From positions 97,401 to 161,400 of IMG/VR virus record IMGVR_UViG_3300025146_000011: a DNA stretch of 64,000 nt. One strand, given 5' to 3'. Made by a program: the position numbers and the translations under genes. How positions within the stretch are numbered: position 1 is the stretch's first letter; the number at the start of each line of letters is the position of its first letter. The stretch is from a virus. Below are positions 45,406 through 64,000 of the stretch, piece after piece. Under the pieces are notes generated by a model, which saw nothing but the letters and a program-made list of their open reading frames with translations, was not told where the DNA came from and did no database searches.

Positions 45406-45421
45406 TTATTTCACGCTCCTA

Positions 45422-47576: not shown

Positions 47577-47623
47577 CTATTATTCTTCCTCCTTCGAGAT
47601 GACGCTCTCGTATTAACTTAGAA

Positions 47624-47652
47624 GAAGAGGCGAGCGATTAACTCGCCTCTTC
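47624..47652 (-). terminator. Hairpin between head protein and capsid genes
   Basis: An 11-bp perfect stem (gaagaggcgag / ctcgcctcttc) with a 7-nt loop, starting 7 nt after the stop of the 411-residue gene. On the minus strand it is followed by TTCTAAGTTAAT. Together with the hairpin at 46382 it isolates the capsid gene on its own transcript segment. Confidence 0.7.
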
Positions 47653-47658
47653 CTTATC

Positions 47659-48894: not shown

Positions 48895-48942
48895 TTATTA
48901 TTCCTCCTAAAATTTTGTTCTAGGCACATTCGTTGCTGCATA

Positions 48943-50091: not shown

Positions 50092-50093
50092 AA

Positions 50094-51023: not shown

Positions 51024-51035
51024 ATATGACCTCTC

Positions 51036-53174
51036 TTAGTTAATTTCTACTGCGCATTTACACGCACGATGAAACGGTGGTAAATTATTAAATAATTCAC
51101 CATAGCTTACTAAAGTCAAGTCCTTATTAGCTAGGGTACTACATACACTACACTCATTGTTTTGTAGTGTATTGATTCTCAAACCCAACTCTCGCGATCT
51201 AAGCACTATACCATAGTAGTAACTGCGTTTAACTATATCTATTAAGTACTTAGATTTAGCTTCTATACGTATATGTTTATCTATATACTTATCTAGGCTT
51301 TCAGAAGAAAGCCCTCTGTGTTTTGGAATAGCACTATCAATCTCATCGAAGAATGCAGCAAGAACATCACGTATGTAGGAATTCATCCTCATACTCTCTT
51401 TAGTAGACATATCTCTATGAGATCCTAGATGGAATGATTCATTGGCAAAATATTTAATATGAGCTTGTAATTTCTCCTTACTTATGTGTGCTGATAGATG
51501 AGCTGTGATGGGTGCTCCCACCGTAATTGCATTGCGTATATTATGAGACATCTCTTGTGATATCTTTTCTATTCCACCTATGATTCTATCAAATCCATCT
51601 ACCGTATCACTTTCTTTTAATTCTTTCTTTATCTTAGGACCAAGACGAACACCGTGTTGATTTTGAGGTTGATTTTTATTATTAGTAGCTGGCGTACCAG
51701 CTTTGGCCTTACCTATTTGTTGATCACCTAAGACTACTAATGAAGCTTCTATGTCTTCTCCGCCATATCCAGACCTAGCTAGTCCCTCTGCAACCAACTG
51801 AGGTATCTTAACTTTATATGTTCGCATCTTATGTCTTTCATCTTCTTTGATTGGATCCATACCTATAGCTTGGCGCATTTCATCTTCGTCTATCGCATCG
51901 TGTTCGTATTTATATATTGTGTGATTTTGGAGTTTAACAAGTAGGTCTGTCTCTATTTCTTCAAATGATAATGCTACCATATTATTTACTGGATCTACAT
52001 AGAAAGAATAACCGCCTTCTTCGAGAAGCTCTCTAAATACGAAGTGGGTTATATATGTCTCTATAAGCTTCTGATATGACTTTACCTGATCATGCATTTC
52101 TGTGGTAAGGGTATCTGATGTACTACGATTAACTGTTTCTCCTAGGCCCATTTGAACGCCTGAAACACCCAATCCTGTGAAGACCCGTTCCCTAAAGTAT
52201 TTTAGGTAGGGTTCAACATCTAGTGCCTCACCTTGTACTCCAACTACCTTAATATCTGTGCGCTCATTAGTTACCCATGTTGCATCCGATGGAGCTTGAT
52301 CTAATCGATTCTTCATATCAAGTACTTCTTCTTCAGATGCAAATAGTGTTGGATCATTGGGTAGTCCCACTTTGATTTGCGTAAATGGATAAGTATAACG
52401 ATATATCAATCTAGCAACGTTCTCTTCTATTTCACGAAGTAATTTTATATCTTCCATAACAGGTATGAGATGACTATTACCCCATGTAAATCCATCTTCT
52501 GGATCTGCTTTAATGTGTATAACATCCTTAGGATGGAAGTGAGCTACATTTTCTTTAGTTGACCCTAATACTCTACCAAATTGATATCCATGTCTACTTT
52601 GAAGATATGATATAATCTTCCCACGGTCATCTTTAATAGGAGCTACTGTTGCAGGATGAGCTATGAAATATCCTGCTATTGGAAACTTCTCATCGTTTGT
52701 TGGTGAAATAGGAATGCGCTTAGGCATGCTTGAGTATTCTGCTCGTTGTTTAACTATAAATACATTACCATACAATACCACGTCTTTAGCTATACGATGT
52801 AGGAATATATCTGTTGGTTCTTTGGTGGCATCAGCTAACATCATCAATCTTATACGTAAGTAGTCAACTATCTTGGTATCCTTACCCTTCAAACTCCAAC
52901 CAGCCTTAAACATAAGATTAACAAATTTGGAAACCGACTGGCGGACATAGCTGTCATTATAGTATGACATCATTATCTGACGCATATCTAAGAATGGGCG
53001 ATCAACTACCGTACGTGTTCCCTTACCCGTACCATGACCTCTAGCTGTTAAAAAGAAGGCTTGCTGTAATCCGCCTAAAAAAGCAGTTGGATTAGCATAA
53101 GCTTGTTCTAATTGTGATGGTGTACTGGAATTGGTTGAAAGAATGTCCTTTATGTTTTTAATTTTCGGAACCAT
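51036..53174 (-). CDS. Portal protein with C-terminal MuF-like tail
   Basis: 712 residues; GAGGT before ATG 53174. The portal core includes DRPFLDMRQIMMSYYNDSYVRQSVSKFVNLMFKAGW, RIAKDVVLYGNVFIVKQR and VIHIKADPEDGFTWGNSHLIPVMEDIKLLREIEENV, all typical. The extra C-terminal ~150 residues end in NECSVCSTLANKDLTLVSYG...NNLPPFHRACKCAVEIN, the CxxC...PPxHxxCxC signature of MuF-type minor head proteins. Portal and MuF functions thus appear fused. The protein forms the packaging vertex, and the MuF part may be injected or stabilise the neck. Confidence 0.85.
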   Translation of the reverse strand: MVPKIKNIKDILSTNSSTPSQLEQAYANPTAFLGGLQQAFFLTARGHGTGKGTRTVVDRPFLDMRQIMMSYYNDSYVRQSVSKFVNLMFKAGWSLKGKDTKIVDYLRIRLMMLADATKEPTDIFLHRIAKDVVLYGNVFIVKQRAEYSSMPKRIPISPTNDEKFPIAGYFIAHPATVAPIKDDRGKIISYLQSRHGYQFGRVLGSTKENVAHFHPKDVIHIKADPEDGFTWGNSHLIPVMEDIKLLREIEENVARLIYRYTYPFTQIKVGLPNDPTLFASEEEVLDMKNRLDQAPSDATWVTNERTDIKVVGVQGEALDVEPYLKYFRERVFTGLGVSGVQMGLGETVNRSTSDTLTTEMHDQVKSYQKLIETYITHFVFRELLEEGGYSFYVDPVNNMVALSFEEIETDLLVKLQNHTIYKYEHDAIDEDEMRQAIGMDPIKEDERHKMRTYKVKIPQLVAEGLARSGYGGEDIEASLVVLGDQQIGKAKAGTPATNNKNQPQNQHGVRLGPKIKKELKESDTVDGFDRIIGGIEKISQEMSHNIRNAITVGAPITAHLSAHISKEKLQAHIKYFANESFHLGSHRDMSTKESMRMNSYIRDVLAAFFDEIDSAIPKHRGLSSESLDKYIDKHIRIEAKSKYLIDIVKRSYYYGIVLRSRELGLRINTLQNNECSVCSTLANKDLTLVSYGELFNNLPPFHRACKCAVEIN

Positions 53175-53180
53175 GTAAGA

Positions 53181-54227
53181 TTATACCTCTTCTTCCCCAT
53201 CATCTAATAATGGGTATGAACCTATCCGTTTTAATAGCAATTTAGGAGAAGATCCTATGGTTGAAGGTGATAATTTTATTAATACTAGACTATCACTTTT
53301 AAGATCTCCAGCCAGAATAATATCTGACATAGGGTTAATTATGTATCTAGTAAATACTCGATACAATTCTCTTGCATTATATTCTGGATTAAATCCTATT
53401 TTAATTAGATGTTCTATAACTTCATCACTAGGTTCTAGTTTAATCTCTAGTCGTTGAAGTTTTTTATTTAGTTCTTTAAAATACTTGCCTAATATAAGTT
53501 TGATCTCCACTTCAGTTAATGGTTTAAAATAAAGCATAGCTGTTAGTCTATTAATTAGTTCTGGTCTAAGTAATGCCTTTATTTCTTTATTAACTGATTT
53601 CTCTATATCAACTATGCGATTATTGTTTCTAAATCCAAGTGTTTGATTGTTGCTATAGTTTTTAGAGCCAATATTGGATGTCATAATTATTATTGATTTA
53701 GAGAAGTCTGCTTGGGTGCCCGAACCATCTGTAAGAACAGCTTCATCTAGTATCTGAAGAAATAAATCAAAGAAAGTAGGGTGTGCTTTTTCTACTTCAT
53801 CAAAGAGAATTATAGTACCCTTATCCTTACGTTGTTGCATCATACGTATTAATACTGAACCATTTTCGTGTCCAATATAGCCAGGAGGAGCACCTATTAA
53901 TCTAGTAGCCATAAATTCTTGAGCATATTCAGAACAGTCTATTTTAATAAGTCCTTCTTTTCCAAATGCATGTTCCGCTAATACCTTTGCAGTTTGTGAC
54001 TTGCCTGAACCTGTAGGACCAACAAATAAAAAAGCACCTATGGGTTTGTTGGGTTCGTTTAATCCAACTAAATATCTTTTAAAGGTCTGTAGAACAACAT
54101 CTATTGCATTGTTTTGTCCAAATATGTGATTATTGACTTGGCTTCTTAGGTCGCCATAGAATTTATTTGCATCATAAATTGTATTTAGGAATGGTAGAGA
54201 GTTAGGTGATGGCGCTGACATTGTCAT
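53181..54227 (-). CDS. Clp/Hsp100-type AAA+ unfoldase (ClpA/B/C D2-like), 348 aa
   Basis: I place the start at ATG 54227 (MTMSAPS) with AAAAGGAG 6 nt upstream. A longer frame to 54329 would overlap the next gene. Walker A GPTGSGKS (70-77), pore loop GAPPGYIG (112-119), Walker B IILFDEVEKAHP (139-150), sensor 1 TSNIG, RPELINR (221-227) and sensor 2 YNAREL (~283-288) are all intact. LGF at 197-199 sits where ClpA/ClpC carry the IGL/VGF ClpP-docking loop. It lacks an N-domain and a first AAA ring. A protein-remodelling ATPase between portal and terminase is unusual; a role in capsid maturation, or use of host ClpP, is inference. Confidence 0.85.
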   Translation of the reverse strand: MTMSAPSPNSLPFLNTIYDANKFYGDLRSQVNNHIFGQNNAIDVVLQTFKRYLVGLNEPNKPIGAFLFVGPTGSGKSQTAKVLAEHAFGKEGLIKIDCSEYAQEFMATRLIGAPPGYIGHENGSVLIRMMQQRKDKGTIILFDEVEKAHPTFFDLFLQILDEAVLTDGSGTQADFSKSIIIMTSNIGSKNYSNNQTLGFRNNNRIVDIEKSVNKEIKALLRPELINRLTAMLYFKPLTEVEIKLILGKYFKELNKKLQRLEIKLEPSDEVIEHLIKIGFNPEYNARELYRVFTRYIINPMSDIILAGDLKSDSLVLIKLSPSTIGSSPKLLLKRIGSYPLLDDGEEEV

Positions 54228-54258
54228 AGTAACTCCTTTTAAAGTAGTTTCTAGATAG

Positions 54259-55548
54259 TTAATCCATAAGCCGTGGAAAAGGACTAGACTGAAATACTCT
54301 TTTTTGTTCACCAAATAACTTATTGCCAAATGAAGATAATATGTCTTTAACTGTATTAGACATGTTGAAATCTTTATTTTTTAAACCCTTAAGTTTAGTA
54401 TTAATAGAATCTAAAGCTCCATGCATTAATCTTTTACTATCCTTATCATGCAGGAAATCATAGCGATTGTCAAATAATTGATTTTTAAGAGCAAATAACC
54501 TAGCCATATTTATCATTTTCTCTGTTTGGTATTGATGTACTACTCTGGCTGATGAAGTAATTTGAGAAGCCATCATATTAAAATCTTGGTTAGGTGGAGC
54601 TAAATTCAATAAGTCTGTTAAGAAAGATGCGCCAGGTTTCTTTATCTTATCACCCAAAAAAGATATCCCGAGAGCCATCTTAGGATCTATCTCTAGATTA
54701 CCTACTGTACCAACTACTCTTTGAATATTGCTGTCCCCTATTGGTTCACTTGAGCGCTTAATATCATTAGCTAATGTGATTATACCCATAAGTTGACTAA
54801 TACCTTGTATAAAACTTGAGATTGACTTAGGACTATCTTTAATTGATTGTAATATAGGAGTAGTCATATTAGCAATCTGTTGTCTTACTACCGCCTTCTT
54901 ACGAAGGGCTATGTAATTAGATATTGCTATAGCTAGCTTATCCATACCATCGCGCATTACGTTTACATAGTCGGCTATGCCTGGAGGTAATTGAGTACTA
55001 TGGTATCTATCTAAATCATTTGTATTGCTTAATAGATCGCTTTGTAAAAGAGTAATGATTCCACTTACTGCATTTGCATATACATATAGTTCTATATTTC
55101 GTATGCCAAATAGATCTGCATATATCTCAGCATCTATATTGCCTGTAATGTCAGAAGCCCCTTTTTGGAAAGTATTTACTATGGTTTGAGATAGTGGTTG
55201 TGTTCTAGTAAGATAATAATTCTTTAGGTCTTGTATGGTTAGAGAACTAATTCCTTGTAGGTAAGTTAGATCTTCGTCTGTAAGATCTAACTCAGATATA
55301 TTAATTGAGAAGTGAGCAAGAGATAATTCTATATCATTCAATTGTTCATCTAAGATTCCAGCCGTGTCCTTAACAGCATCCTTTAGGTAAATAATCTCTT
55401 GAACAGTTGGAATAAATACAAGAGGTAATTCTGCTGCTTGCTCACGCTCACCTAAAGTTTCACCGTCACGTATAGCTGGTGGTGGATGATATGTAATATC
55501 AGGAGCAAAACCTAATAATTCCTCATCATTACTCTTAAAGTCATTCAT
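54259..55548 (-). CDS. Helical head/packaging-associated protein, 429 aa
   Basis: The ATG at 55548 overlaps the terminase stop (TAATG), with GAGGT 6 nt upstream. Mostly alpha-helical with long amphipathic stretches (ILDEQLNDIELSLAHFSI, IQDLKNYYLTRTQPLSQTI, SISSFIQGISQLMGIITLANDIKR). No enzymatic motif. The protein sits between terminase and the Clp-type ATPase and may be a partner or substrate of that ATPase. The family is not recognised. Confidence 0.65.
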   Translation of the reverse strand: MNDFKSNDEELLGFAPDITYHPPPAIRDGETLGEREQAAELPLVFIPTVQEIIYLKDAVKDTAGILDEQLNDIELSLAHFSINISELDLTDEDLTYLQGISSLTIQDLKNYYLTRTQPLSQTIVNTFQKGASDITGNIDAEIYADLFGIRNIELYVYANAVSGIITLLQSDLLSNTNDLDRYHSTQLPPGIADYVNVMRDGMDKLAIAISNYIALRKKAVVRQQIANMTTPILQSIKDSPKSISSFIQGISQLMGIITLANDIKRSSEPIGDSNIQRVVGTVGNLEIDPKMALGISFLGDKIKKPGASFLTDLLNLAPPNQDFNMMASQITSSARVVHQYQTEKMINMARLFALKNQLFDNRYDFLHDKDSKRLMHGALDSINTKLKGLKNKDFNMSNTVKDILSSFGNKLFGEQKRVFQSSPFPRLMD

Positions 55549-57263
55549 TAGCTACCTCGCGTAAAACTTCTACGTCTTATACCTGAACCACCAAATCTAG
55601 ATACTGTAGGATTAAAGCTGTCGAATCCCCCTCCTCGCAATCCATACTGATTGGATGGTATAAACCCAGGCGGAGGGGGCTCATAATCTATATTGGTGTT
55701 GCGTTTTTGTAATGGTGAGGTTTTGTTTTCAGGTACGCGCTTTAAGATATTGCTAATAGGCTGCATCTCAGCATAAGATTCTACCTTGCCCATATTTAAA
55801 AAGTGTTCGGTAATACCATATACTGCTAACATAAGAGCGTCTATGGCATGTTCGTTCTTAGAAGAGAAAATGGGTTGTCCATTTTGGCTCATACGCTTAA
55901 CTCGATATTCGTTTAACTCTAGGGTCATGAAGTGATCATGAGGACTTAGTATAAGTACTTCGTCATCAAACATCTGAGTTAATCTATTTACCATTAGTGG
56001 TTTGATTGGCGTTGATGATCTTACCCTAGTATGCGGATCTAGAATATCTACTGACTGTCCAAAATGTACACCAATTACTTTATCGTGAAGTTTGGTTTCT
56101 GGATTCTCCAAACCAACTACTTTTAAGTTTTCTATCTGACCTTCTCCATAACCACGATCACAATAGATATAATCTGGTTGATAGAAATCATTAAGCATAA
56201 CTATTTTCTTAGTAGCGTTATGTAGGGTATATTCTCCTATTGGTATTTCATGTCTTGCTATTACGCGCATATAATAGTCTTTATCATCATATCTTTCAAA
56301 CTGCACAACAACTATCTGAGTAGCAGCATGATACTTATCCCAATCTACTCCTATTACGATAGGATGTTCTTTGCTATAAAGCTTAGACATAAGATACCCA
56401 TAATTAGGATGAGATTTGGGAGAATGAGTATACCATGGTGTATCGCGATTTTTAGCAGTATCTATTTTTTCTTTCTTAAATACCGCAAATGATTCAGAAC
56501 CAAAATCAGCTAGTTGTTCATGTTCATACCTAACTGGCCCAATGAGCATACGTATCTGCCTATCACGTTCTTCATTCCAATCTGGTATTGCTTCCCAGCA
56601 ATTATAGTGAAATGATTTGAAGCCTCTGGGTTCTGGATCAACACATGTCTCGTAGTATATACCTCTTTTACCTGATGGAGTAGATGTCATTATAAACCTA
56701 ATGTCATCTGATTGACCCAAGATAGCTAAAGCTGATGTCATGTCATCATCCGTACAATAGTCTGCTTCTTCTACCCATATTAAATCACCCCACTTACCAC
56801 GAATACCCATGGCTGCCATTCCCGACTTGGTACCTGCTGTTAAGAATTGTATAACAGCACCGTTTTTAAAACGCAAAAATGCAGGTGCTTTAGCGGGCTT
56901 CTCTATACTCTCTTGAAAATCTTTAGAGGTATTTATGAGTGTTAGCATATTCTGATAAATATCATTAAGATGGGTTTCTAGTGGAGCCATCACAATAACT
57001 TTGTATCGTTGCTTGCGGGTAGGATCTATGACCTTACCATTAGTAAAACATAACCATAAAACCATCATACATACTAATTCGGTTTTACCACCACGACGTG
57101 CTACGCGTAACGCAAAACGTTTAGCATTTGTTGCAACAACTGTTTGTTGCCAATCACGAAGAGTTTTATCGAAAAATTCTTTTGCGAAGAGAGGAAAGGT
57201 CTTAAGAACTTCTATATACCTACTGCGTTGTTCTGGAGTAAAACGAGTTATATCTATACCCAT
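55548..57263 (-). CDS. Terminase large subunit
   Basis: 571 residues. ATPase domain: Walker A-like RVARRGGKTE (~53-62), Walker B LIWVEEAD (161-168) and a motif III-like TSTPSGKRG (~193-201). Nuclease domain: VIGVDWDKYHA (~303-313), YIYCDRGYGEGQ (~365-376) and a late HAIDALMLA, giving the acidic triad of RNase H-fold nucleases. The C-terminus is a Gly/Arg-rich tail. No clear Shine-Dalgarno precedes ATG 57263. It drives headful-type packaging through the portal encoded downstream. High confidence. Confidence 0.9.
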   Translation of the reverse strand: MGIDITRFTPEQRSRYIEVLKTFPLFAKEFFDKTLRDWQQTVVATNAKRFALRVARRGGKTELVCMMVLWLCFTNGKVIDPTRKQRYKVIVMAPLETHLNDIYQNMLTLINTSKDFQESIEKPAKAPAFLRFKNGAVIQFLTAGTKSGMAAMGIRGKWGDLIWVEEADYCTDDDMTSALAILGQSDDIRFIMTSTPSGKRGIYYETCVDPEPRGFKSFHYNCWEAIPDWNEERDRQIRMLIGPVRYEHEQLADFGSESFAVFKKEKIDTAKNRDTPWYTHSPKSHPNYGYLMSKLYSKEHPIVIGVDWDKYHAATQIVVVQFERYDDKDYYMRVIARHEIPIGEYTLHNATKKIVMLNDFYQPDYIYCDRGYGEGQIENLKVVGLENPETKLHDKVIGVHFGQSVDILDPHTRVRSSTPIKPLMVNRLTQMFDDEVLILSPHDHFMTLELNEYRVKRMSQNGQPIFSSKNEHAIDALMLAVYGITEHFLNMGKVESYAEMQPISNILKRVPENKTSPLQKRNTNIDYEPPPPGFIPSNQYGLRGGGFDSFNPTVSRFGGSGIRRRSFTRGS

Positions 57264-57268
57264 ATAAA

Positions 57269-57742
57269 TTAATAAGATGCTCCATAAAAAGAATTATAAC
57301 CAGCACCACCAATAGAACCTGCTCCTGAATATCTTGCTGACATAAGGGCGGCTTCTTGGCCGATAATATTACGAGCATTTAGCTTAGATTGATTTATAGC
57401 TGTAAGAGCTCTTGCTCTATTAGTAGCCAAATAGGCATTATCTAATACATCTCTAGGTCCAAAGGTTTGGGCACCAAACATCATAGTGCCTGCAGCTTGT
57501 CGCCTGTTGGCTTCCATAGCTGTGCCTGCAGCTGATAAGAAAGGAGCGGCGTGAATTGCTGTCATAGCGGCTGGGTAAAGATACCATAAGGCTTGGGAAC
57601 CTATTGTTTTAAGAGCTGCTGTAACGGGTTTATCACGCTCTCCCAAGTGAGAGCGATACTCCATAACCCCACCAATACCAACAGCAGTTGCTGGCAACCA
57701 TTTAGCTTTAAAATGCTTTGCTATACTTGAAATTAAAGACAT
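57269..57742 (-). CDS. Ala/Gly-rich virion protein, 157 aa
   Basis: AGAGGA precedes ATG 57742. One of three consecutive short proteins rich in Ala, Gly, Met and aromatic residues. It carries hydrophobic helices (ALWYLYPAAMTAIHAAPFLSAAG) and an Arg/Ala helix (NRARALTAINQSKLNARNI), ending in a Gly/Tyr/Ser-rich tail. The amphipathic composition suggests membrane interaction or an internal head protein. No named family. Confidence 0.65.
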   Translation of the reverse strand: MSLISSIAKHFKAKWLPATAVGIGGVMEYRSHLGERDKPVTAALKTIGSQALWYLYPAAMTAIHAAPFLSAAGTAMEANRRQAAGTMMFGAQTFGPRDVLDNAYLATNRARALTAINQSKLNARNIIGQEAALMSARYSGAGSIGGAGYNSFYGASY

Positions 57743-57766
57743 AGATCGAATCCTCTAAATAACCTT

Positions 57767-58159
57767 CTAAAGAAACATATAAGCAGCCGCCATTGGAGAT
57801 ATATTAACATCTGGTGTTTTATTTAAACCAAAAACAAGATCTCCTTGAGCACTTGCTTGGAAACGTTGCATAGGAGAATGTCCTCGCACCTCGGCGTACT
57901 GTTTAGGATCCACACTAGGATAGTTCATAGCACCAAAAGCAAAAGCTCCTGCTGCTATTCCAAAACCAATAGGTGCTTGATACTTATGGGCAAATTTACC
58001 TAAGCTCCAAGCTCCTTGAGCTAAACCCATACCTGTTTGTAGGGTTCCCCTGTTAAACACAGCTCCTGTTACACCCCTAGTAATACCCCATCCTGTACGA
58101 GCCCCAAACTTAGTAGTGCTCCATACACCTTTTAATAATGAACCCAATAAACTTGGCAT
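57767..58159 (-). CDS. Gly/Ala-rich virion protein, 130 aa
   Basis: The Shine-Dalgarno is weak. The sequence begins SLLGSLLKGVWSTTKFGARTGWGITRG and has a hydrophobic middle (PIGFGIAAGAFAFGAMNY), then a polar C-terminus ending NISPMAAAYMFL. The composition resembles the two neighbours more than any other gene here. It may be a membrane-active or internal virion peptide. Function is unknown. Confidence 0.6.
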   Translation of the reverse strand: MPSLLGSLLKGVWSTTKFGARTGWGITRGVTGAVFNRGTLQTGMGLAQGAWSLGKFAHKYQAPIGFGIAAGAFAFGAMNYPSVDPKQYAEVRGHSPMQRFQASAQGDLVFGLNKTPDVNISPMAAAYMFL

Positions 58160-58173
58160 TTGTTATTTTAGCC

Positions 58174-58590
58174 CTATAATCCTATTGGTCCTCTTGACCT
58201 ACCTCTTTGAAAGTTCTCTGCGGGACCACCAAAAGCTACTCCACCTAAGTCTCCTAAGGTACCTACGGTAGCACCTAATCCTCGAGCAATAAGATTAGTT
58301 CCCATCCAACCTCCACCTAAGCCCATACCTACACCTGCTACTTTGCCAGCAGTAGACATCCCACCCCATGCTTCAGCTATACCACCACCAAAACCACTCA
58401 TTGAACCACCAACTCTACCTAAAAAAGATGGACTTGCAAGATTACCCATAAGACTAGGCGAACCAGCCCAACCACTTCTCATACCACCAAATCCTGCACC
58501 AAACATCCCTGCTCCTTGTTTGATAGCAGCATAAGCTGAAGGGGCATATCTCGTCATATTATTCCATATACTACCAACAAAATTAGGCAT
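58174..58590 (-). CDS. Gly-rich virion protein, 138 aa
   Basis: AAAGGA precedes ATG 58590. About one quarter glycine with Met/Ser/Trp interspersed (GMFGAGFGGMRSGW, GFGGGIAEAWGGMSTAGKVAGVGMGLGGGW) and a terminal basic tail (RGRSRGPIGL). It is the first of a three-gene series between small and large terminase. No catalytic motif. The opposite-strand open frame is a composition artefact. Confidence 0.6.
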   Translation of the reverse strand: MPNFVGSIWNNMTRYAPSAYAAIKQGAGMFGAGFGGMRSGWAGSPSLMGNLASPSFLGRVGGSMSGFGGGIAEAWGGMSTAGKVAGVGMGLGGGWMGTNLIARGLGATVGTLGDLGGVAFGGPAENFQRGRSRGPIGL

Positions 58591-58592
58591 GC

Positions 58593-59261
58593 CTAATCAT
58601 CCTTTCGAATATCAGTAACTTCAGCATCAAGGGTAAGCAACCGATCAGCTACCTCAGCACCTGTATTACCTGATAGTTGCTTCTTATCAGCTCTCGTAGC
58701 TTGTAATAGCCTAAGGATTTCATGTCTACGGCGCATATGCTTATCGCGAATATCTAGTGATGCATTAACTTCTTTCTTAGTGTAAACCTCACTGTTCTTC
58801 GTAGCTAGAACAGGAACATCCACTACTTCATATTCAAGAGATAATCTCTTCTCGCATCGCTCGATCATAACCTCTATAGCTACTAACTCCTTCACTAACG
58901 TGAAGTCGGCAAAGTGGTCGTCCTTATTTGGATCTATACCAAACTCACGGAGATACCTATCTGTATTGGTCATAACCAATGCTATCTCAGGCACACACCT
59001 GTCACCTATGTGTGCCTCTTGTGCCTGCCACGCACCACATATAAGAGCAAAAGGACATTGCTCGCCATTACATAACATGGGTACATTAGCAAACATACCA
59101 TGAGTACTACGTCGTTGTTGAAGTTCTACTGTTATAGCATCAACCTTACGTTGATCTAAATTCCACTCTCGAGGAAATTTCCATCCAGGAGGAGGAGCTG
59201 GAAGCTCCCTATTATTCTTAACTAATGATTCTATATTTGGCTTACGATAATTTCTTCGCAT
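58593..59261 (-). CDS. Small terminase subunit candidate with cysteine cluster, 222 aa
   Basis: I place the start at ATG 59261 (MRRNYRKPN), which has GGAG 8 nt upstream; ATG 59297 has none. Residues ~65-95 hold CNGEQCPFALICGAW and GDRCVPE, a four-cysteine arrangement that could bind zinc or an iron-sulphur cluster. The C-terminal half is helical and charged (KHMRRRHEILRLLQATRADKKQL), suitable for DNA binding and oligomerisation. As first gene of the late operon it occupies the usual small-terminase place. The identity is inferred, not motif-proven. Confidence 0.5.
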   Translation of the reverse strand: MRRNYRKPNIESLVKNNRELPAPPPGWKFPREWNLDQRKVDAITVELQQRRSTHGMFANVPMLCNGEQCPFALICGAWQAQEAHIGDRCVPEIALVMTNTDRYLREFGIDPNKDDHFADFTLVKELVAIEVMIERCEKRLSLEYEVVDVPVLATKNSEVYTKKEVNASLDIRDKHMRRRHEILRLLQATRADKKQLSGNTGAEVADRLLTLDAEVTDIRKDD

Positions 59262-59297
59262 TACAATATCTCCGTTTAATTGATGCATTAGATCCAT

Positions 59298-59523
59298 AGG
59301 TTATTAGGTGCTAACTAATTATATACTGTATATGGTTTTTCCGCAACCTTAATGGATTGCTTATTACTGACAGAGATCTCTGTATGTAATATTACATACA
59401 GTAATATCTTATAAGAGAACTACTTTTAGTAGTTCTCTGTATTATAATATTACTGACAGTGATGTTATATATATTATATAAAAGAATTAATATATAACAT
59501 ATATTGATCTTTTTGTCAAGTGA
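59298..59523 (-). promoter_or_regulatory. Late-operon leader region with promoter, operators and dyads
   Basis: No gene is visible. On the minus strand TTGACA (59519-59514), a 17-nt spacer and TATATA (59496-59491) preceded by TGT form a strong sigma70-like promoter pointing to the terminase genes. Downstream lie a 12-bp palindrome (59371-59382), a 20-bp palindrome (59381-59400), an 11-bp hairpin with a 3-nt loop (59414-59438) and TATTACTGACAG repeated at 59362-59373 and 59448-59459. The repeats look like operator sites for a phage regulator. The structured leader is about 220 nt. Confidence 0.6.
59491..59519 (-). promoter_or_regulatory. Candidate extended -10 promoter for the late block
   Basis: TTGACA at the -35 position, a 17-nt spacer, then TGT-TATATA. 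Orientation is toward the terminase and structural genes. It is the best-matching promoter I found in the window. Confidence 0.6.
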
Positions 59524-59920
59524 TCAGGAATGCCATAAATCCATGGGTGAGGTATTAACTTGAGGAATATGTTCTTCCCGCTTACGCTTATTACCCTTAC
59601 CAGCTTTATCCATGGCTACCGCTTGAACTTTGCTTTTACCTGATCTAATTAACTCAGCTTAACTCAGTAATGTTATCTGCAATAGTTTGTTTGCTAGATC
59701 CTTTCTTAAGGGGTATAGATCTAATACCTCTTTCTGCTTTCCATTTTCCGATCATCGAATCGTCTAGGATGTGGTCTCCTGTATATGCCTCAGGAAACAG
59801 CTCTAATTGGTCATATAGCGCAGAAGTTACTCCAAGTTGGTCTAAGATACCTGTCACCTCTAACTCATGTGTTTTAGGCCCATCTGAGATGATAATACAT
59901 ACATAGGTTATACTATCCAA
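59524..59920 (-). pseudogene. Small gene apparently frameshifted by a 10-bp tandem duplication
   Basis: The visible frame from 59920 (88 codons, MDSITYVCIIISDGPKTHEL...) stops at 59654. At 59649-59667 the 9-mer TTAACTCAG (plus strand) occurs twice with period 10. Removing one copy joins NITEL directly to IRSGKSKVQAVAMDKAGKGN and on to PMDLWHS with a TGA at 59526-59524, a frame of 128 residues. Both halves look protein-like. The start overlaps the upstream gene by 13 nt. Function is unknown. It may be a decayed gene, a reversible switch or a sequence error. Confidence 0.55.
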
Positions 59921-60147
59921 GAACTATTTGTCCATCGATCTAGAATAGTCATCGTACCTGGTTGAAATTTCTCAGCGTAAGCTACAGCATCATTACTGGT
60001 ATCAAAGATGTGCCTAATAGGATTATTTATGCTACCTACTTCAAATCTACCTTCGGTAATAAATACCTTATCCACCGCCGTTAGGAACGGCGATACCTTA
60101 TTAGGTAAATCATTATATTTATTACTTCTAATGTTTGGTACTATCAT
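59908..60147 (-). CDS. Small unrecognised protein, 79 aa
   Basis: I choose ATG 60147 (MIVPNIRSNKYNDL) because GGGAG is 8 nt upstream; the ATG at 60168 lacks one. The sequence continues KVFITEGRFEVGSINNPIRHIFDTSNDAVAYAEKFQPGTMTILDRW, compact and plausible. It is intact while its two neighbours both carry frame-disrupting duplications. No motif recognised; its AT-rich codons resemble the late genes, but a short GC-rich hairpin (cgccgtt-agg-aacggcg) is present inside. Confidence 0.55.
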   Translation of the reverse strand: MIVPNIRSNKYNDLPNKVSPFLTAVDKVFITEGRFEVGSINNPIRHIFDTSNDAVAYAEKFQPGTMTILDRWTNSSWIV

Positions 60148-60748: not shown

Positions 60749-60823
60749 ATGATATTTGAACTTTGGATTTGTGTCGCCTATTGTTGGGCGATACTGAACG
60801 CTGAGTTCGCAACCATAGAGTAA
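60749..60823 (+). CDS. 24-aa minigene
   Basis: AAAGGAGGTGA lies 8 nt before ATG 60749. The peptide is MIFELWICVAYCWAILNAEF plus ATIE: hydrophobic with two cysteines and two tryptophans. Its stop TAA sits in the loop of an 11-bp stem (60808-60835). Two more small stems (60774-60791; gaac/gttc near 60795) lie inside the gene. It could be a membrane micropeptide or a leader peptide whose translation controls the next gene. Small size makes the call uncertain, but the ribosome site is one of the best in the window. Confidence 0.5.
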   Translation: MIFELWICVAYCWAILNAEFATIE

Positions 60824-60826
60824 TCT

Positions 60827-60931
60827 ATGGTTGCGGGCTTAACCCCAACCACGGGGTGTAGGTGGGAGGTGGCTTGCGACACCGATGATGAGGTCTATGT
60901 AAGACCTGACCGTGAGGCAGGCTGTAGATGA
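60827..60931 (+). CDS. 34-aa coupled minigene candidate
   Basis: ATG 60827 is 3 nt after the previous stop with no own ribosome site, so expression would need reinitiation. The peptide is basic then acidic (MVAGLTPTTGCRWEV, ACDTDDEVYVRPDREAGCR), with three cysteines. Its ATG lies in the 3' arm of the same stem that loops the preceding stop codon, which would couple both. Without supporting data it may be just leader sequence. Confidence 0.35.
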   Translation: MVAGLTPTTGCRWEVACDTDDEVYVRPDREAGCR

Positions 60932-60943
60932 AAGGAGTATAAT

Positions 60944-61180
60944 ATGAGTATTTGTAAAGGTAGAGAGCTTTACGACGCCATCATGGAATGGTGTCAGAAC
61001 CCGCCCGCGGGGTTCACTGGATGGGTAGGCTATGCCTACCCGTCCAGCTGCGCAGCGTGCGCAGCTGAAAAGATTGAATGCACGAGTTTTTACATTCACA
61101 GTAACCTCGGCCAGTGCGTTAATGTTGTAATAAAGGGGAAGGAGGATCTCGGCGCATTCTACGCCGAGGTCTCTGAGTAA
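60944..61180 (+). CDS. Small cysteine-containing protein, 78 aa
   Basis: AAAGGAG six bases before ATG 60944. The sequence MSICKGRELYDAIMEWCQNPP, GYAYPSSCAACAAEKIECTSFYIHSN has five cysteines in the first 46 residues, including CAAC, and may bind metal. Family not recognised. The DNA is packed with hairpins: an 8-bp stem at 60974-60995, a 14-bp stem at 61017-61047, a 10-bp perfect stem at 61045-61067 and a 7-bp stem at 61148-61168. A strong terminator follows. Confidence 0.75.
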   Translation: MSICKGRELYDAIMEWCQNPPAGFTGWVGYAYPSSCAACAAEKIECTSFYIHSNLGQCVNVVIKGKEDLGAFYAEVSE

Positions 61181-61188
61181 AGTAAGTT

Positions 61189-61230
61189 GGGGGGAAGGGA
61201 GAGCTTACAAGCTCTCCCTTCCCCTTTTTT
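61189..61230 (+). terminator. Rho-independent terminator after the 78-aa gene
   Basis: A 15-bp G/A-rich perfect stem (61191-61224) with a tiny loop and TTTTTT at 61225-61230. It closes the first early transcription unit. Confidence 0.9.
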
Positions 61231-61287
61231 GCACCCACCAAGTGGGTGACATTACGCCGCTTAACAGCGGCAGAAAGTAGGTATTAT

Positions 61288-61455
61288 ATGATGAGTTTTG
61301 AAAGTTGGATCGAAAAGAGATACTCGGGTTGGGAACCCGAGTTAGTCTGGGGGCTTTTGGACAAGCTCCCAGAGTATGTCTGGGAGTTACGCTCGCGATA
61401 TCATCGCGAGCAGCTTTCAGAAGCTGTTCGCCTTCGAAAGGAGGTGAGCAAATGA
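61288..61455 (+). CDS. Small acidic/aromatic protein, 55 aa
   Basis: ATG 61288 (MMSFESWIEKRYSGW) is preceded by a weak AGTAGGT. An in-frame GTG at 61246 lies in a hairpin and is less likely. The helix WGLLDKLPEYVWELRSRYHREQLSEAVRLRKE fills the C-terminal half. Hairpins: 9-bp at 61322-61342, 10-bp at 61347-61372, a competing 8-bp at 61366-61386, 9-bp at 61391-61411 and 6-bp at 61411-61426. The stop overlaps the next ATG (ATGA). Confidence 0.7.
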   Translation: MMSFESWIEKRYSGWEPELVWGLLDKLPEYVWELRSRYHREQLSEAVRLRKEVSK

Positions 61456-61616
61456 TCAGGGACCTGATTGATGAGTTGTACCTGGAGGCAGCCCCTTGCT
61501 GGGGCTGCCTCCAGCAGGTAGACCAGGACTATGAGTCCTGGTCGGAAGACCTCGTTCTTACGGACGAGGATATCAACGCGATGTACGATGAGTACATCGC
61601 GCGAAAGGAGGGATAG
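61452..61616 (+). CDS. Small acidic protein, 54 aa
   Basis: AAAGGAGGTGAG stands 4-6 nt before ATG 61452, inside the 3' end of the previous gene. The acidic helical peptide is MIRDLIDELYLEAAPCWGC, then DQDYESWSEDLVLTDEDINAMYDEYIA. A CWGC pair is present. The gene is almost entirely stems: 14-bp perfect 61482-61514, 10-bp 61521-61543, 8-bp 61550-61569 and 10-bp 61577-61601. The net charge could suit a DNA-mimic or anti-defence protein, but that is speculation. Confidence 0.7.
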   Translation: MIRDLIDELYLEAAPCWGCLQQVDQDYESWSEDLVLTDEDINAMYDEYIARKEG

Positions 61617-61686
61617 TTAGGACTGAGCTTACGAGGTAGTGACCGCCTCGTTAAATAATGGTCACGAGAAAGAGAGGTGAGTAAAT

Positions 61687-61890
61687 ATGTTAAGGTTGTT
61701 AATTTGTATTTTTATAGCAGTACTAGGTTGGTTCCTTCGAAAGAAGGACAACCTAATTGGTACCACCCTCTTATGGGTGGGGTTGGTGGGAGCAGCTTGT
61801 GTGCTGCTCCCATGGTTGGGAGGAGTGCTTGTAGTACTCCTCCTATTAGGAGGAGCAGGGTTTGTTGTTGATATATGCAGCAAGCGGTAG
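61687..61890 (+). CDS. Small integral membrane protein, 67 aa
   Basis: AGAGGTGA precedes ATG 61687. MLRLLICIFIAVLGWFL, then a short KK loop, TTLLWVGLVGAACVLLPW and GGVLVVLLLLGGAGFVV give three hydrophobic segments. A second frame starting at 61677 is a shadow. Hairpins include a GAAA-tetraloop stem (61724-61755), a 10-bp stem at 61787-61812 and an 11-bp stem at 61819-61843 that competes with a 7-bp one at 61837-61855. The stop codon is partly in the loop of a 7-bp stem (61879-61896). Confidence 0.7.
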   Translation: MLRLLICIFIAVLGWFLRKKDNLIGTTLLWVGLVGAACVLLPWLGGVLVVLLLLGGAGFVVDICSKR

Positions 61891-61918
61891 CTTGCTAGAT
61901 TAGAAAGGAGGGATATTA

Positions 61919-62137
61919 ATGGAATACTTGTTTAAGTTCGTGCGCTGTCAGTACAGCGCACGAATGATGTTTATCACTAACCCAGAATGGGTTAGTGATC
62001 TAGGATACAACCCTGAAGTAATAAAGGGTTGTATCCTGAAAGCAATCTGGGCACTTTATTTGCCCAGATTGTATGATGGAGCCCTAATAAGATGTGACTG
62101 GATATGGTATCTAAGTCACGTCTCAACAAACAACTAA
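61919..62137 (+). CDS. Small unrecognised protein, 72 aa
   Basis: AAAGGAGGG is 7 nt before ATG 61919. The peptide (MEYLFKFVRCQYSARMMFIT, EVIKGCILKAIWALYLPRLYDGALIRCDWIWYL) is aromatic and partly amphipathic, with three cysteines. Stems: 12-bp perfect 61937-61964, 12-bp perfect 61973-61999, 13-bp 62002-62037, 11-bp 62043-62071 and 10-bp 62090-62123 with an inner 4-bp stem. These cover about 150 of 219 nt. Function is unknown. Confidence 0.75.
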   Translation: MEYLFKFVRCQYSARMMFITNPEWVSDLGYNPEVIKGCILKAIWALYLPRLYDGALIRCDWIWYLSHVSTNN

Positions 62138-62153
62138 AGAAAGGAGGTGAAAT

Positions 62154-62333
62154 ATGAGAATATTATCATCAACTTCTATGGTGGAAGTTGATGATATAGA
62201 CTTCTGCACTGTATGTGGAGAAGTAGGTCTCCTGACATCTTGTCAGGAGATGGGCGTATGCGTTGATTGTGCATACGATTGGGGGTGGGTAATAGCCTGC
62301 CCCCTGGAAGACGACTACGAGGATTACTCGTAG
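62154..62333 (+). CDS. Zinc-ribbon-like small protein, 59 aa
   Basis: AAAGGAGGTGA lies 6 nt upstream of ATG 62154. The peptide MRILSSTSMVEVDDIDFCTV, CGEVGLLTSCQEMGVCVDCAYDWG has CxxC (18, 21) and CxxC (36, 39) with additional C30 and C49, a typical zinc-ribbon spacing. The C-terminus is acidic (EDDYEDYS). Stems: 13-bp 62164-62196, 10-bp 62228-62250, 7-bp 62255-62277 and 9-bp 62313-62335 with the TAG stop in its 3' arm. A terminator follows. It may bind RNA polymerase or nucleic acid; that is inference. Confidence 0.7.
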   Translation: MRILSSTSMVEVDDIDFCTVCGEVGLLTSCQEMGVCVDCAYDWGWVIACPLEDDYEDYS

Positions 62334-62338
62334 TCTTC

Positions 62339-62379
62339 GGAGCGGTAGAGGCTTGTTTAGCTCTACCGCTCCCCTTTTT
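62339..62379 (+). terminator. Rho-independent terminator after the zinc-ribbon gene
   Basis: A 12-bp perfect stem (62339-62350 / 62361-62372) followed by CCTTTTT. It ends the second early transcription unit. Confidence 0.9.
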
Positions 62380-63050
62380 CCTCCCAACAGGGGTGCTTCG
62401 CACCCCCCTCCCTACTTCCTCTTACCTCAAGCCTTCGGCTCCCCTTGTCTATTCCTATTCCAACCTACCCTTATCTACTACGCCTTCGGCGCCCAACGTT
62501 GATAATACAACATCCGTTTGAAAAACCACATCCAATAGCCACGCCAGTTTTTGACCACGTAGCAGAGCCATTTTTTGCCTGTCCTTTAGATGTCGTTCCC
62601 TGTAGCTGAGGTAGTCTCAAGTCAATGGTAGAGCCATTCTTAAAAACCACCTTATTGGTACTCATCTCTCAAAAACAAATGGCTTTAATCCAGGGTTTTC
62701 TTTCAAGGCTTATATAGGGAGTTATTTTATGCCTCATATATAACCCTTAAAGAACCTCTTAGTGCTCCCATCAGGGGCCTTCGGCCCCTCTTCCCTATCC
62801 AACTTAACCTTATAGTATAAGTTGATAGCCTATACATGAGGATACTATTCCCCCCCACTAACCTTGATGTTGTAATAATAGTGTCCCGACCAGAGGGGCT
62901 AAACCCCCTCTGCTCTCCAGCTACAACACCTAAAAGAGGGAGGGGAGGTGCCACCATCAACTCGCCTCCTCGAGCCCCCCTCTTTAGCTTCCCTCTGTCT
63001 CATGCCTCTTTCTTCCCCTTACTTCTCCTCATCTCTTTACCTCTTTCTTT
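62380..63050. other. Region with scattered hairpins and a pyrimidine-rich tract
   Basis: Only one doubtful gene (62471-62665 minus) is seen here. Small stems with TTC/TTCG loops occur at ggggtgc-ttc-gcacccc (~62391), near 62478 and at ~62776, and cagagggg-ctaaac-cccctctg near 62893. From about 62970 to 63050 the plus strand is strongly pyrimidine-rich (purine-rich on the minus strand). No promoter of good quality was found. This may be a long leader or 3' region. Confidence 0.4.
62471..62665 (-). CDS. Doubtful small protein, 64 aa
   Basis: MSTNKVVFKNGSTIDLRLPQ, LQGTTSKGQAKNGSATWSKT and a Cys/Gly-rich then Arg-rich end. The first 40 residues look like a real protein, but the Shine-Dalgarno is absent and the end is composition-driven. 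It is opposite in direction to its neighbours. Low confidence. Confidence 0.3.
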   Translation of the reverse strand: MSTNKVVFKNGSTIDLRLPQLQGTTSKGQAKNGSATWSKTGVAIGCGFSNGCCIINVGRRRRSR

Positions 63051-63054
63051 TAGT

Positions 63055-63192
63055 CAGCAGCTGCCTGCTGCCTTAAAAAGCAAAGCACATGGGGCAGACA
63101 TTGTCAAGACAAACAGCGTATCTTGACAATTCAGTTCCTTGTCTGCCCCATGTGCACCTACAATATCCAAGGCAGCAGGCATCTAGCTGCTG
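63055..63192 (+). ncRNA. 138-nt nested stem structure in the leader of the 121-aa gene
   Basis: Four collinear stems pair perfectly: 7 bp (63055-63061 / 63186-63192), 13 bp (63062-63074 / 63169-63181), 16 bp (63085-63100 / 63140-63155) and 9 bp (63101-63109 / 63121-63129), with an 11-nt apical loop. Total 45 pairs. It ends 3 nt before the AAAAGGAGG ribosome site. It may be a cis-regulatory element or a processed small RNA; no known riboswitch is recognised. Confidence 0.7.
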
Positions 63193-63210
63193 CCAAAAGG
63201 AGGTAAAAAA

Positions 63211-63576
63211 ATGAGCTTTATAGAAGTTAAAGGGAAAAAAGAAGCGAGCCTTATCGGGCTCGCTAAGGGTTTATTGGCTCGCCCTTTGGGCGAGCTAATA
63301 GAAAGATTTAATGCTGAGAAAGGGAGCGTAAGCTCTCCTGTAATTATTACAGGAGAGCTGGCTGAGATCTTTGATCTCAGCCCAGATGCGTGCGTCTGGA
63401 CTGGGATCGGACTTGGTCCCAGGGACACGGGGAACCCGTCCCCGTGGATTACAATAAAGGACGGTGAAGAGTTCAAACTCTACACCGTCCAGTTTGGACG
63501 GTACGGAGGAGCTCGCGTGAGTGAGCTCCTCCAGGAGCCTAAAAAGGCTCCTGGAAAAATCAAGCCTAGTTTCTAG
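63211..63576 (+). CDS. Unrecognised soluble protein, 121 aa, hairpin-encoded
   Basis: AAAAGGAGGT lies 6 nt before ATG 63211. The peptide MSFIEVKGKKEASLIGLAKG, ELIERFNAEKGSVSSPVIITGELAEIF, GPRDTGNPSPWITIKDGEEFKLYTVQFGRYGGARVSELL looks like a compact alpha/beta domain with a basic tail; the family is not recognised. By hand count eleven consecutive stems cover about 260 of the 366 nt, for example 13-bp 63272-63300, 13-bp 63331-63359, 12-bp 63505-63532, 11-bp 63530-63555 and 13-bp 63557-63585 containing the stop. Confidence 0.8.
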   Translation: MSFIEVKGKKEASLIGLAKGLLARPLGELIERFNAEKGSVSSPVIITGELAEIFDLSPDACVWTGIGLGPRDTGNPSPWITIKDGEEFKLYTVQFGRYGGARVSELLQEPKKAPGKIKPSF

Positions 63577-63585
63577 GCTTGATTT

Positions 63586-63613
63586 AGCCGAGGGCATTAG
63601 CCCTCGGCTTTTT
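63586..63613 (+). terminator. Rho-independent terminator after the 121-aa gene
   Basis: A 9-bp perfect stem (agccgaggg / ccctcggct) with a 6-nt loop and TTTTT. An A-run of 14 follows shortly after (63619-63632). Confidence 0.9.
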
Positions 63614-63646
63614 AATTCAAAAAAAAAAAAAGAAAGAAGGCGTAAA

Positions 63647-63683
63647 GTTTCAATCCCTTACTGATCAGGTCTCATTTTTCTAC
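63647..63683. other. Single CRISPR-repeat-like 37-mer
   Basis: Begins GTTTCAATCCCTTA, the conserved end of many type I/III CRISPR repeats, and extends to TTTTTCTAC, about 37 nt, a common repeat length. Only one copy is visible in the window, so this is not an array. It might be a solitary repeat carried by the phage or coincidence. Confidence 0.3.
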
Positions 63684-63705
63684 TTTTTCTACGGAAGATG
63701 AGAGT

Positions 63706-63737
63706 GGGCGGGTAGGATATCTACCACCTGCCCTTTT
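63706..63737 (+). terminator. Hairpin with TTTT in the leader of the right-edge gene
   Basis: Stem GGTAG/CTACC extended by GGGC/GCCC across an internal loop, followed by TTTT. It lies about 140 nt upstream of the next start codon and may be an attenuator or the terminator of a small transcript. Further stems lie at ~63767-63807 and 63821-63846. Confidence 0.55.
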
Positions 63738-63877
63738 CTGTTCGTGGGGAAGATAAGTCTGTGGATGACAGGGTGTTTTGCATACGGTGTGCAAGCATCC
63801 TGTTATGTATCTTGGTAAGACCACCTAAGTTTGTATTGTTTAGGTGGATATTATGGATAAAGAAAGGAAGTGTAAAT

Positions 63878-64000
63878 ATGTTTATTAATATCAGCAACCA
63901 CCCATATGGGAAATGGTCAATAGAACAAAGAGAAGGGGTAAAAGGGGATATATTAGATATGCCGTTTCCGCAAGTTGACCCCTCCTTAGACAAGGAGGGG
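63878..64000 (+). CDS. Small protein with SNHP..W...Q / PFP.VDP signature, truncated by window end
   Basis: AAAGGAAGTG is 6 nt before ATG 63878; 41 codons are visible and open at the right edge. MFINISNHPYGKWSIEQREG, then DILDMPFPQVDPSLDKEG. I recall short Rossmann-like proteins with this N-terminal pattern (SNHP, W, Q, then I.D.PFP.VDP) that occur near type III CRISPR loci; the exact family name cannot be verified here. A perfect 9-bp stem (63979-64000) lies in the coding sequence, as in the other genes of this cassette. Confidence 0.65.
   Translation, partial: MFINISNHPYGKWSIEQREGVKGDILDMPFPQVDPSLDKEG

What the first reader, a model, noticed from the sequence alone, without database searches (positions are those of the whole stretch)
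60749..64000. Early-type genes encoded almost wholly by consecutive, unrelated hairpins
Seen directly: at least eight small plus-strand genes consist of back-to-back inverted repeats, mostly perfect 7-14 bp with 3-10 nt loops, each with different arms. By hand count stems plus loops cover about 115/165 nt (61452 gene), 154/219 (61919), 100/180 (62154) and 260/366 (63211). The late genes to the left show nothing like it. Because arm sequences differ, this is not a spreading palindromic element; it looks like selection for local pairing itself. Possible reasons (inference): mRNA stability, heat stability, control of ribosome speed, binding of a phage RNA-binding protein, or shielding of early transcripts from RNA-guided or RNA-cleaving defence.
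Basis: seen in the sequence. Interest (0 to 1): 0.88.

Follow-up and report, generated by a model that had tools for sequence, protein, structure and literature searches.

The report
Phage early genes packed with hairpins
A short block of small genes in a large bacterial virus is written largely as back-to-back RNA hairpins, a distantly related virus shows the same style in the same place, and the kinds of base pairs point to selection on the folded messenger RNA itself.

Summary
Window 60749-63640 has 39 perfect hairpins (stem 7+, loop 3-12) against 1.7 expected; 12 have stems of 11+, none in 200 shuffles. No other part of 171 kb is comparable. Of 188 genes, the seven with most excess folding energy per length over synonymous shuffles lie here or just right of it. 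The block diverges from the terminase operon. A remote relative (G009, terminase 36% identical) has a second such block of unrelated small genes in the same place. Inside ORFs, stems with wobbles carry coding-strand G.U far more often than A.C (32 against 9; shuffles 5.5 and 4.3), pointing to selection on sense RNA. The structured block runs on into a csx20 gene (type III CRISPR ring-nuclease family), over-structured unlike three bacterial csx20 genes. Function is inferred: stable hairpins most likely protect early mRNA from attack on single-stranded RNA, perhaps RNA-guided CRISPR. Covariation could not be tested: no diverged homologue of the zone was found.

The parts
60749..63640 (+). Hairpin-dense zone: 39 non-overlapping perfect hairpins (stem 7-15, loop 3-11), 33% of bases in perfect hairpins
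60749..60823 (+). g1, 24-aa ORF with AAAGGAGG ribosome site; a 12-bp perfect hairpin (60808-60835) spans its stop codon
   Evidence: sequence
60944..61180 (+). g2, 78-aa orphan ORF, 3 perfect hairpins, z(syn) -4.3
61191..61230 (+). 15-bp perfect hairpin followed by a T-run: likely terminator closing a first transcription unit
   Evidence: inference (not among the sites listed)
61288..61455 (+). g3, 55-aa orphan ORF, 3 perfect hairpins, z(syn) -6.2; overlaps g4 start
61452..61616 (+). g4, 54-aa orphan ORF, 3 perfect hairpins incl. 14 bp, z(syn) -6.3
61687..61890 (+). g5, 67-aa hydrophobic orphan ORF, 2 perfect hairpins (3 stems with G.U allowed), z(syn) -7.1
61919..62137 (+). g6, 72-aa orphan ORF, 4 consecutive hairpins of 11-13 bp, z(syn) -7.4
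62154..62333 (+). g7, 59-aa orphan ORF, 4 hairpins, z(syn) -7.3
62339..62378 (+). 12-bp perfect hairpin plus T-run: likely terminator of a second unit
   Evidence: inference (loop of 10 is outside the limits of the scan)
63048..63194 (+). Nested stems outside ORFs (16-bp outer stem 63085-63155, inner 63100-63130, GCAGCAG arms) before g8; possible structured leader
63211..63576 (+). g8, 121-aa orphan ORF, 7 perfect hairpins inside the ORF, z(syn) -8.4
63586..63614 (+). 10-bp hairpin plus T-run: likely terminator of a third unit
63647..63683 (+). 37-nt solitary direct repeat resembling a CRISPR repeat; second copy (35 of 37) 1.0 kb further right, outside the window
   Evidence: CRISPR likeness recalled, no array found
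63878..64000 (+). Start of csx20 homologue (125 aa, ends at 64255 beyond the window; L022:10668-11045); over-structured mRNA, z(syn) -6.7 and -5.5 in two runs, -3.4 with 100-nt tiles

Best explanation
The first mRNAs to the right of the late block of this phage are under selection, on the RNA strand itself, to consist of dense, short, very stable local hairpins, while ribosome-binding sites stay relatively open. Shown: the enrichment, its near-confinement to this gene block, its independence of protein sequence and codon usage, the coding-strand G.U preference, and a second case in a remote relative at the same place. Inferred: that the block is expressed early, and that the hairpins work as a physical shield. 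Short hairpins should refold quickly behind RNA polymerase and ribosomes, and opening a 36-nt stretch is predicted to cost 1.5 times as much as in synonymous shuffles and about twice as much as in late genes, so the first phage transcripts would resist whatever attacks single-stranded mRNA: host ribonucleases, mRNA-cutting toxins, or RNA-guided CRISPR complexes (the last hinted at by the csx20 gene at the end of the structured block). I hold RNA-level selection at about 0.85, shielding as the function at about 0.45, and RNA-guided defence as the specific agent at about 0.15-0.2.
For: 39 hairpins against 1.7 expected; one such zone in the genome-wide scan. Of 188 genes (first 600 nt, 15 synonymous shuffles each) the seven with the largest excess of folding energy per 100 nt lie in 158.3-161.9 kb of the record: six in the zone, one just right of it; g1 and g3 were not in that set. 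Synonymous-shuffle z of -4.3 to -8.4 for g2-g10. Intragenic stems with a wobble: sense G.U 15 (G000) and 17 (G009), A.C 5 and 4; shuffles expect 2.0, 3.5, 1.2 and 3.1; binomial P of 32 or more in 41 is 0.003. Second phage. Ribosome sites on average less paired (0.44 unpaired, range 0.17-0.63) than ORF bodies (0.22). Opening 36 nt: 19.7 kcal in g2-g8, 13.4 in their synonymous shuffles, 10.1 in six late genes. csx20 homologue; over-structured, unlike three bacterial csx20 genes. RNA secondary structure is reported as an important factor lowering the sensitivity of a type III Cmr complex (PMC8682760, passages).
Against: No diverged homologue, so no covariation test (for G009). Stems in this phage have few wobbles (20 of 311 pairs), fewer than I would expect of an old RNA structure. 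Mean unpaired probability per base is hardly lower than in ordinary genes (0.22 against 0.22-0.28), and the chance that an 8-nt seed is open is not reduced (0.074 against 0.058 in shuffles), so short seeds are not hidden. Four late genes also have sites more open than bodies (0.32 and 0.22). MFE z-scores alone are about equally strong on both strands. In G011 there is no strand preference (4 against 4), and in G010 the excess is mostly between genes. Late genes, which could also be attacked, are not structured as a group. Some genes elsewhere are over-structured too: by z the fifth-ranked gene is at 16.6-17.8 kb (z -5.6), and late gene 58593 has z -4.0. Consensus promoters are no more frequent than chance, so 'early' rests on gene order and content.
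Confidence: 0.55

Rival explanations
1. Translation control: hairpins in the ORF bodies with open ribosome sites tune ribosome traffic or protect dense polysomes, giving high but metered output of tiny takeover proteins; protection from attack is not the point.
For: AAAGGAGG in front of five of eight ORFs (g1, g4, g6, g7, g8), sites on average more open than bodies; mild 5' opening with a tendency to stronger folding downstream is known in dsDNA viruses (PMC3072339, passages).
Against: The strength in single genes (z -4 to -8) is far beyond a weak genome average, and hairpins also fill intergenic stretches.
Confidence: 0.22
2. Mutational origin: template switching during replication keeps writing perfect inverted repeats here, with no selection for RNA folding.
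For: Stems are strikingly perfect, loops short, and all three codon registers are used about equally (10, 8 and 11 stems in this phage).
Against: Decay of such stems should give A.C about as often as G.U on the coding strand; observed 9 against 32 stems. Ribosome sites are on average spared. It recurs at the same place in a remote phage with 29 of 287 pairs wobbled.
Confidence: 0.1
3. DNA-level function: cruciforms or single-stranded-DNA hairpins at an origin, packaging site or injection stop next to the terminase operon.
For: The zone lies 3.5-6.4 kb upstream of the terminase gene, a region where termini and packaging sites can lie (general knowledge); perfect stems.
Against: Coding-strand G.U preference; structure spread over 3.7 kb of separate genes and also in csx20; apparent terminators divide it into units.
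Confidence: 0.08
4. Passive by-product: G+C-rich genes acquired from a host whose RNA is simply more structured.
For: Zone G+C 0.46-0.51 per kb against 0.37 overall.
Against: Dinucleotide, codon-order and synonymous shuffles of the same genes lose the hairpins; G+C-rich relatives at 0.50-0.58 show no comparable zone in what was fetched.
Confidence: 0.05

Closest known systems
Selection on mRNA folding in viral coding regions (conserved coding structures; genome-scale ordered RNA structure of RNA viruses)
   Same: Folding energy lower than codon-preserving shuffles; coding-strand specific; RNA structure and protein encoded together.
   Different: Described cases are conserved local elements in coding regions (PMC6563262, passages) or genome-wide order in RNA viruses (PMC3695492, listing); here one 3.7-kb block of a dsDNA phage consists largely of short perfect hairpins.
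Weak 5' opening and downstream folding trend in dsDNA virus genes (PMC3072339)
   Same: Start region more open, body folded (passages).
   Different: That trend is a weak genome average; here single genes reach z -4 to -8.
Bacillus phage SPO1 host-takeover block
   Same: Block of many small genes, some noted as host shut-off or regulation (takeover role partly recalled).
   Different: No clear hairpin excess: 28 stems against 23 expected in SPO1 1-30 kb.
Csx20 ring nucleases / viral ring nucleases as anti-CRISPRs
   Same: The gene at 63878 matches a Csx20 profile over its full length; Csx20 degrades cA4 and was found in 4 of 28,114 phage genomes (PMC12409355, passages).
   Different: Concerns one neighbouring protein, not the hairpins; three bacterial csx20 mRNAs are not or only weakly over-structured.
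REP-type palindromic repeats
   Same: Short palindromes, many per kb.
   Different: REPs are extragenic palindromes in high copy that sort into shared families (PMC3733652, abstract start in the listing); here every arm differs and many are inside ORFs.

Membership tests
Selected coding-region mRNA structure | Lower folding energy than synonymous-codon shuffles | tested here: met
   g2-g10 z -4.3 to -8.4; six G009 early genes -2.8 to -6.3
Selected coding-region mRNA structure | Coding-strand specificity (G.U tolerated, A.C not) | tested here: met
   32 against 9 stems in G000 and G009 ORFs, shuffles 5.5 and 4.3; 7 G.T against 1 A.C among 15 single interruptions; not met in G011 (4 against 4)
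Selected coding-region mRNA structure | Compensatory changes between homologues | not testable with these tools
   Only copies of the same phage found for the zone and only itself for G009
Genome-scale ordered RNA structure | Structure along the whole genome | tested here: not met
   One zone in 171 kb
Described RNA families (Rfam 15) | Covariance-model match above gathering score | tested here: not met
   0 matches in the window
Spreading palindromic repeat (REP, MITE-like) | Shared sequence among copies | tested here: not met
   39 hairpins listed, no two with the same arm
Csx20 (gene 63878-64255) | Full-length family profile match | tested here: met
   PADLOC PDLC01397 residues 1-124, E 1.8e-22; tblastn to four plasmid records, 98-99% coverage, 32-37% identity
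Csx20 (gene 63878-64255) | NCBI curated cut-off (70 bits) | tested here: not met
   NF040559, 40 bits, residues 65-124: at best a divergent member
Csx20 (gene 63878-64255) | Cleavage of cyclic tetra-adenylate | not testable with these tools
   Needs a biochemical assay
Solitary CRISPR repeat (RNA anti-CRISPR) | Identity to the repeat of a real CRISPR array | tested here: inconclusive
   No array: 0 of 398 genomes of one phylum at up to 3 mismatches; only single hits with E of 1 or more in plasmids and phages

The most novel reading that the evidence does not exclude
The block is a layered counter-defence locus against RNA-targeting immunity: early mRNAs are armoured by hairpins so that type III CRISPR (or Cas13-like) guides bind poorly, a Csx20 ring nuclease removes the alarm signal if they do, and solitary CRISPR-like repeats act as RNA decoys. 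Hairpin armour of mRNA would be a form of immune evasion written into protein-coding sequence.
Probability: 0.13. Interest if true: 0.92.

Novelty: new variant of a known kind. Interest (0 to 1): 0.74.

Why it matters
RNA folding is rarely the dominant constraint on a coding sequence, and I know of no dsDNA phage gene block written as serial hairpins; my full-text searches (listings only, open-licence papers only) showed none that I recognised. It gives a natural system for asking what mRNA structure in ORFs is for, it can be tested by recoding single genes, and it offers a possible way in which phages hide transcripts from RNA-guided defence.

Tried and rejected
Seven zone proteins (g2-g8) against Pfam and PHROGs and six of them against PADLOC: no credible family; g1 was not searched. 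Zone DNA against phages and plasmids: only a 29-base match at E 0.3 in phages, none in plasmids; g8 protein against phages: best E 0.6. Five protein-guided scans of viral contigs from inside the zone and both its sides led, where the zone is covered, only to the same three records of this phage; the one diverged close relative reached (L013, 73-77% DNA identity in its matching stretches) stops just before it. Scan with the 558-aa G009 protein: itself only. Other phage records and contigs surveyed for zones: no strong zone in the Alicyclobacillus, Paenibacillus (200 of 206 kb), Oceanobacillus and BC.035 contigs, in G017 and G024, in SPO1 1-30 kb or in 100 of 217 kb of KLEB27-3. G024 has 9 stems against 1.3 expected on one strand in its first 2 kb. 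MTATph1 (12 stems against 2.9 at 164-168 kb) and G010 (13 against 5.0 at 220-224 kb) have their best 4-kb bin near the corresponding place, but mild; a stem-by-stem look at MTATph1 gave scattered stems on both strands.

Rows left out before counting: of the 80 loci, L012 and L013 were not in the survey; one search left out seven loci (L091, L092, L099, L100, L101, L114, L154), and one search left out L091, L092, L099, L100, L101, L114 and L154; both left out the copies of this phage L088-L090. All these lie in longer records that were included. Many of the remaining loci are near-duplicates of each other, and ORFs may overlap. G011 40,001-60,000 was not fetched. AlphaFold2 single-sequence models of g8 (pLDDT 44.8) and a G009 protein (36.9) are uninformative. 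The CRISPR-repeat likeness of the 37-nt repeat was tested and left open.
Full report
WHAT WAS CHECKED. The window is the right end (97,401-161,400) of a 161.4-kb virus record. Another record of the same phage (L022) extends it by 9.6 kb. The portal protein is 32% identical to that of Moorella phage MTATph1 over 91% of its length; four terminase relatives (33-35%) lie in contigs of Alicyclobacillus, Paenibacillus, Oceanobacillus and an unnamed bacterium's MAG. The host is unknown. The left part of the window is a leftward block with portal and terminase; the zone lies just upstream of it and is read rightward.

THE OBSERVATION. In 60749-63640 there are 39 non-overlapping perfect hairpins (stem 7 or more, loop 3-12), covering 953 of 2892 nt. 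Dinucleotide shuffles give 1.66 on average and 5 at most in 200; stems of 11 or more occur 12 times and never in the shuffles. Coverage in each of ORFs g2-g8 exceeds all 200 synonymous-codon shuffles of that ORF. Per 1-kb bin, hairpins cover 28-34% in the three zone bins and at most 15% in any other bin of the 171 kb. Ranked by excess folding energy per 100 nt over 15 synonymous shuffles (first 600 nt of each gene), the top seven of 188 genes lie in 158.3-161.9 kb of the record: six zone genes and the ORF at window 64260. By z-score four of these lead, and a gene at 16.6-17.8 kb (z -5.6) comes fifth. csx20 has z -3.4 in this measure, and g1 and g3 were not in the set. In the fuller run, g2-g8 have z -4.3 to -8.4; structure continues into csx20 and the next ORF (-6.7, -5.0), falls away for the next four genes (0.2, -1.1, -2.1, -0.6), and reappears in a DUF4326 gene at 69840 (-5.0; family). 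Ten late genes range from 2.0 to -4.0.

RNA, DNA OR MUTATION. Folding energies alone cannot tell the strands apart, since both are low. Wobble appositions can: G.U pairs are stable in the coding-strand RNA, whereas A.C appositions are G.U only on the other strand. Allowing G.U or A.C in turn in ORF stems of 8 or more pairs, stems with a wobble number 15 (G.U) and 5 (A.C) in this phage, and 17 and 4 in the remote relative G009; shuffles expect 2.0, 1.2, 3.5 and 3.1. The split 32 to 9 has binomial P 0.003 given the shuffled ratio. Among 15 stems with a single interruption, 7 are G.T and 1 is A.C. Over whole zones, intergenic parts included and stems of 9 or more, the numbers are 13 and 5 in this phage (shuffles 1.7 and 1.2), 18 and 2 in G009 (2.1, 1.6), 11 and 1 in G010 (2.3, 1.7), and 4 and 4 in G011 (1.1, 2.0); a late control stretch has 4 and 2 (2.8, 1.5). 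So two phages with intragenic hairpins, and one with mainly intergenic ones, lean to the RNA; one does not. Stems in this phage pair in all three codon registers about equally (10, 8, 11), so amino-acid sequence itself has probably yielded to pairing (inference).

RELATIVES. A scan with a seven-member terminase alignment returned 80 loci, the kept best of 472; 78 of them, 1.13 Mb, were surveyed. Apart from three copies of this phage, one locus stood out: L101 (record G009, 26.5 kb, terminase 36% identical), with 11 hairpins in 1 kb and 28 in its last 4.6 kb, again in genes with ribosome sites that diverge from the late block. Its proteins show no credible similarity to g1-g8 (best E 0.03 in a search of eight proteins). 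Of eight ORFs scored there, four are never matched in 200 synonymous shuffles, including a 558-aa ORF; the others are reached or exceeded by 1, 2, 5 and 14 of 200. In 3056 ORFs from 80 records, 17 have at least three stems and more than 22% coverage: 9 are in this phage between 158.3 and 167.1 kb, 4 in G009, and 4 are singletons elsewhere. In observed-to-expected stems per 4-kb bin, MTATph1 (12 against 2.9 at 164 kb; corresponding place if its ends are joined) and G010 (13 against 5.0 at 220 kb) have their highest bin 8-13 kb upstream of the terminase, but weakly; in the remaining records the best bin is weak or elsewhere.

ANATOMY. Three stem-loops followed by T-runs (61191, 62339, 63586) probably divide the zone into three transcription units; only the third is among the sites of the scan. 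Ribosome-binding sites and start codons have mean unpaired probability 0.44 (0.17 to 0.63 over ten genes) against 0.22 for ORF bodies; for four late genes the values are 0.32 and 0.22. Opening a 36-nt stretch costs 19.7 kcal on average in g2-g8, 13.4 in their synonymous shuffles, 10.1 in six late genes and 17.9 in five G009 early genes. The mean chance of finding 8 nt open is not reduced (0.074 against 0.058). Thus invasion of long stretches is predicted to be costly but short seeds are not hidden.

NEIGHBOURING COUNTER-DEFENCE. The ORF at 63878-64255 matches Csx20 over its full length in PADLOC (E 1.8e-22) and below the curated cut-off in NCBIfam (40 of 70 bits), and is 32-37% identical to genes beside type III CRISPR-associated genes on plasmids of Rhodothermus, Aureispira and Runella. 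Csx20 is a confirmed cA4 ring nuclease and was found in four of 28,114 phage genomes (PMC12409355, passages). The phage gene is over-structured (z -5.5; 0 of 60 shuffles as low); the three bacterial genes have z -2.2, 1.0 and -1.7, with 2, 48 and 4 of 60 shuffles as low. Among 12 records searched, the two records of this phage have it and the other ten do not. A 37-nt direct repeat lies on each side of csx20 (37/37 and 35/37) and begins like many CRISPR repeats (recalled), but no array with it was found.

INTERPRETATION. RNA-level selection on these mRNAs is well supported, short of covariation. The function is inferred. Shielding of the first transcripts from agents that need single-stranded RNA fits the near-confinement to this block, the filling of both ORFs and gaps, and the csx20 neighbour; a reported effect of target structure on a type III system makes the CRISPR variant plausible (PMC8682760, passages; the same passages contrast this with a thermophilic Csm complex, where structure may matter less). 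Against it stand the open short seeds, the unstructured late genes and the absence of csx20 in the G009 fragment. Translation control is the main rival. Literature searches listed no report that I recognised as describing such gene blocks; the library holds open-licence papers only.

Noticed in passing
63878-64000 and beyond (L022:10668-11045): Divergent Csx20 (type III CRISPR ring nuclease family) gene in the phage, a candidate anti-CRISPR.
   Followed up: yes
63647-63683 and L022:11464-11500 (extension position 64674-64710): Two solitary 37-nt repeats (GTTTCAATCCCTT...) bracketing csx20, resembling a CRISPR repeat; possible RNA decoy or shared upstream element.
   Followed up: partly
L022, extension 66429-67298 and 67993-69270: Proteins with long NAVGNAVDDAV-type tandem repeats; their DNA also matches a stretch near record position 118,008-118,192.
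   Followed up: no
G009 (record of L101) 12,953-15,202: Terminase frame of 847 aa whose profile match is split at about position 68 by an extra in-frame stretch; may hold an intein (inference).
   Followed up: no
62380-63045: Pyrimidine-rich stretch without clear plus-strand genes between the second and third hairpin units, with a few UUC/UUCG-type hairpins.
   Followed up: no
G010 215.9-219.9 kb: Series of tiny ORFs with hairpins mostly between genes, at the place corresponding to the zone.
   Followed up: partly
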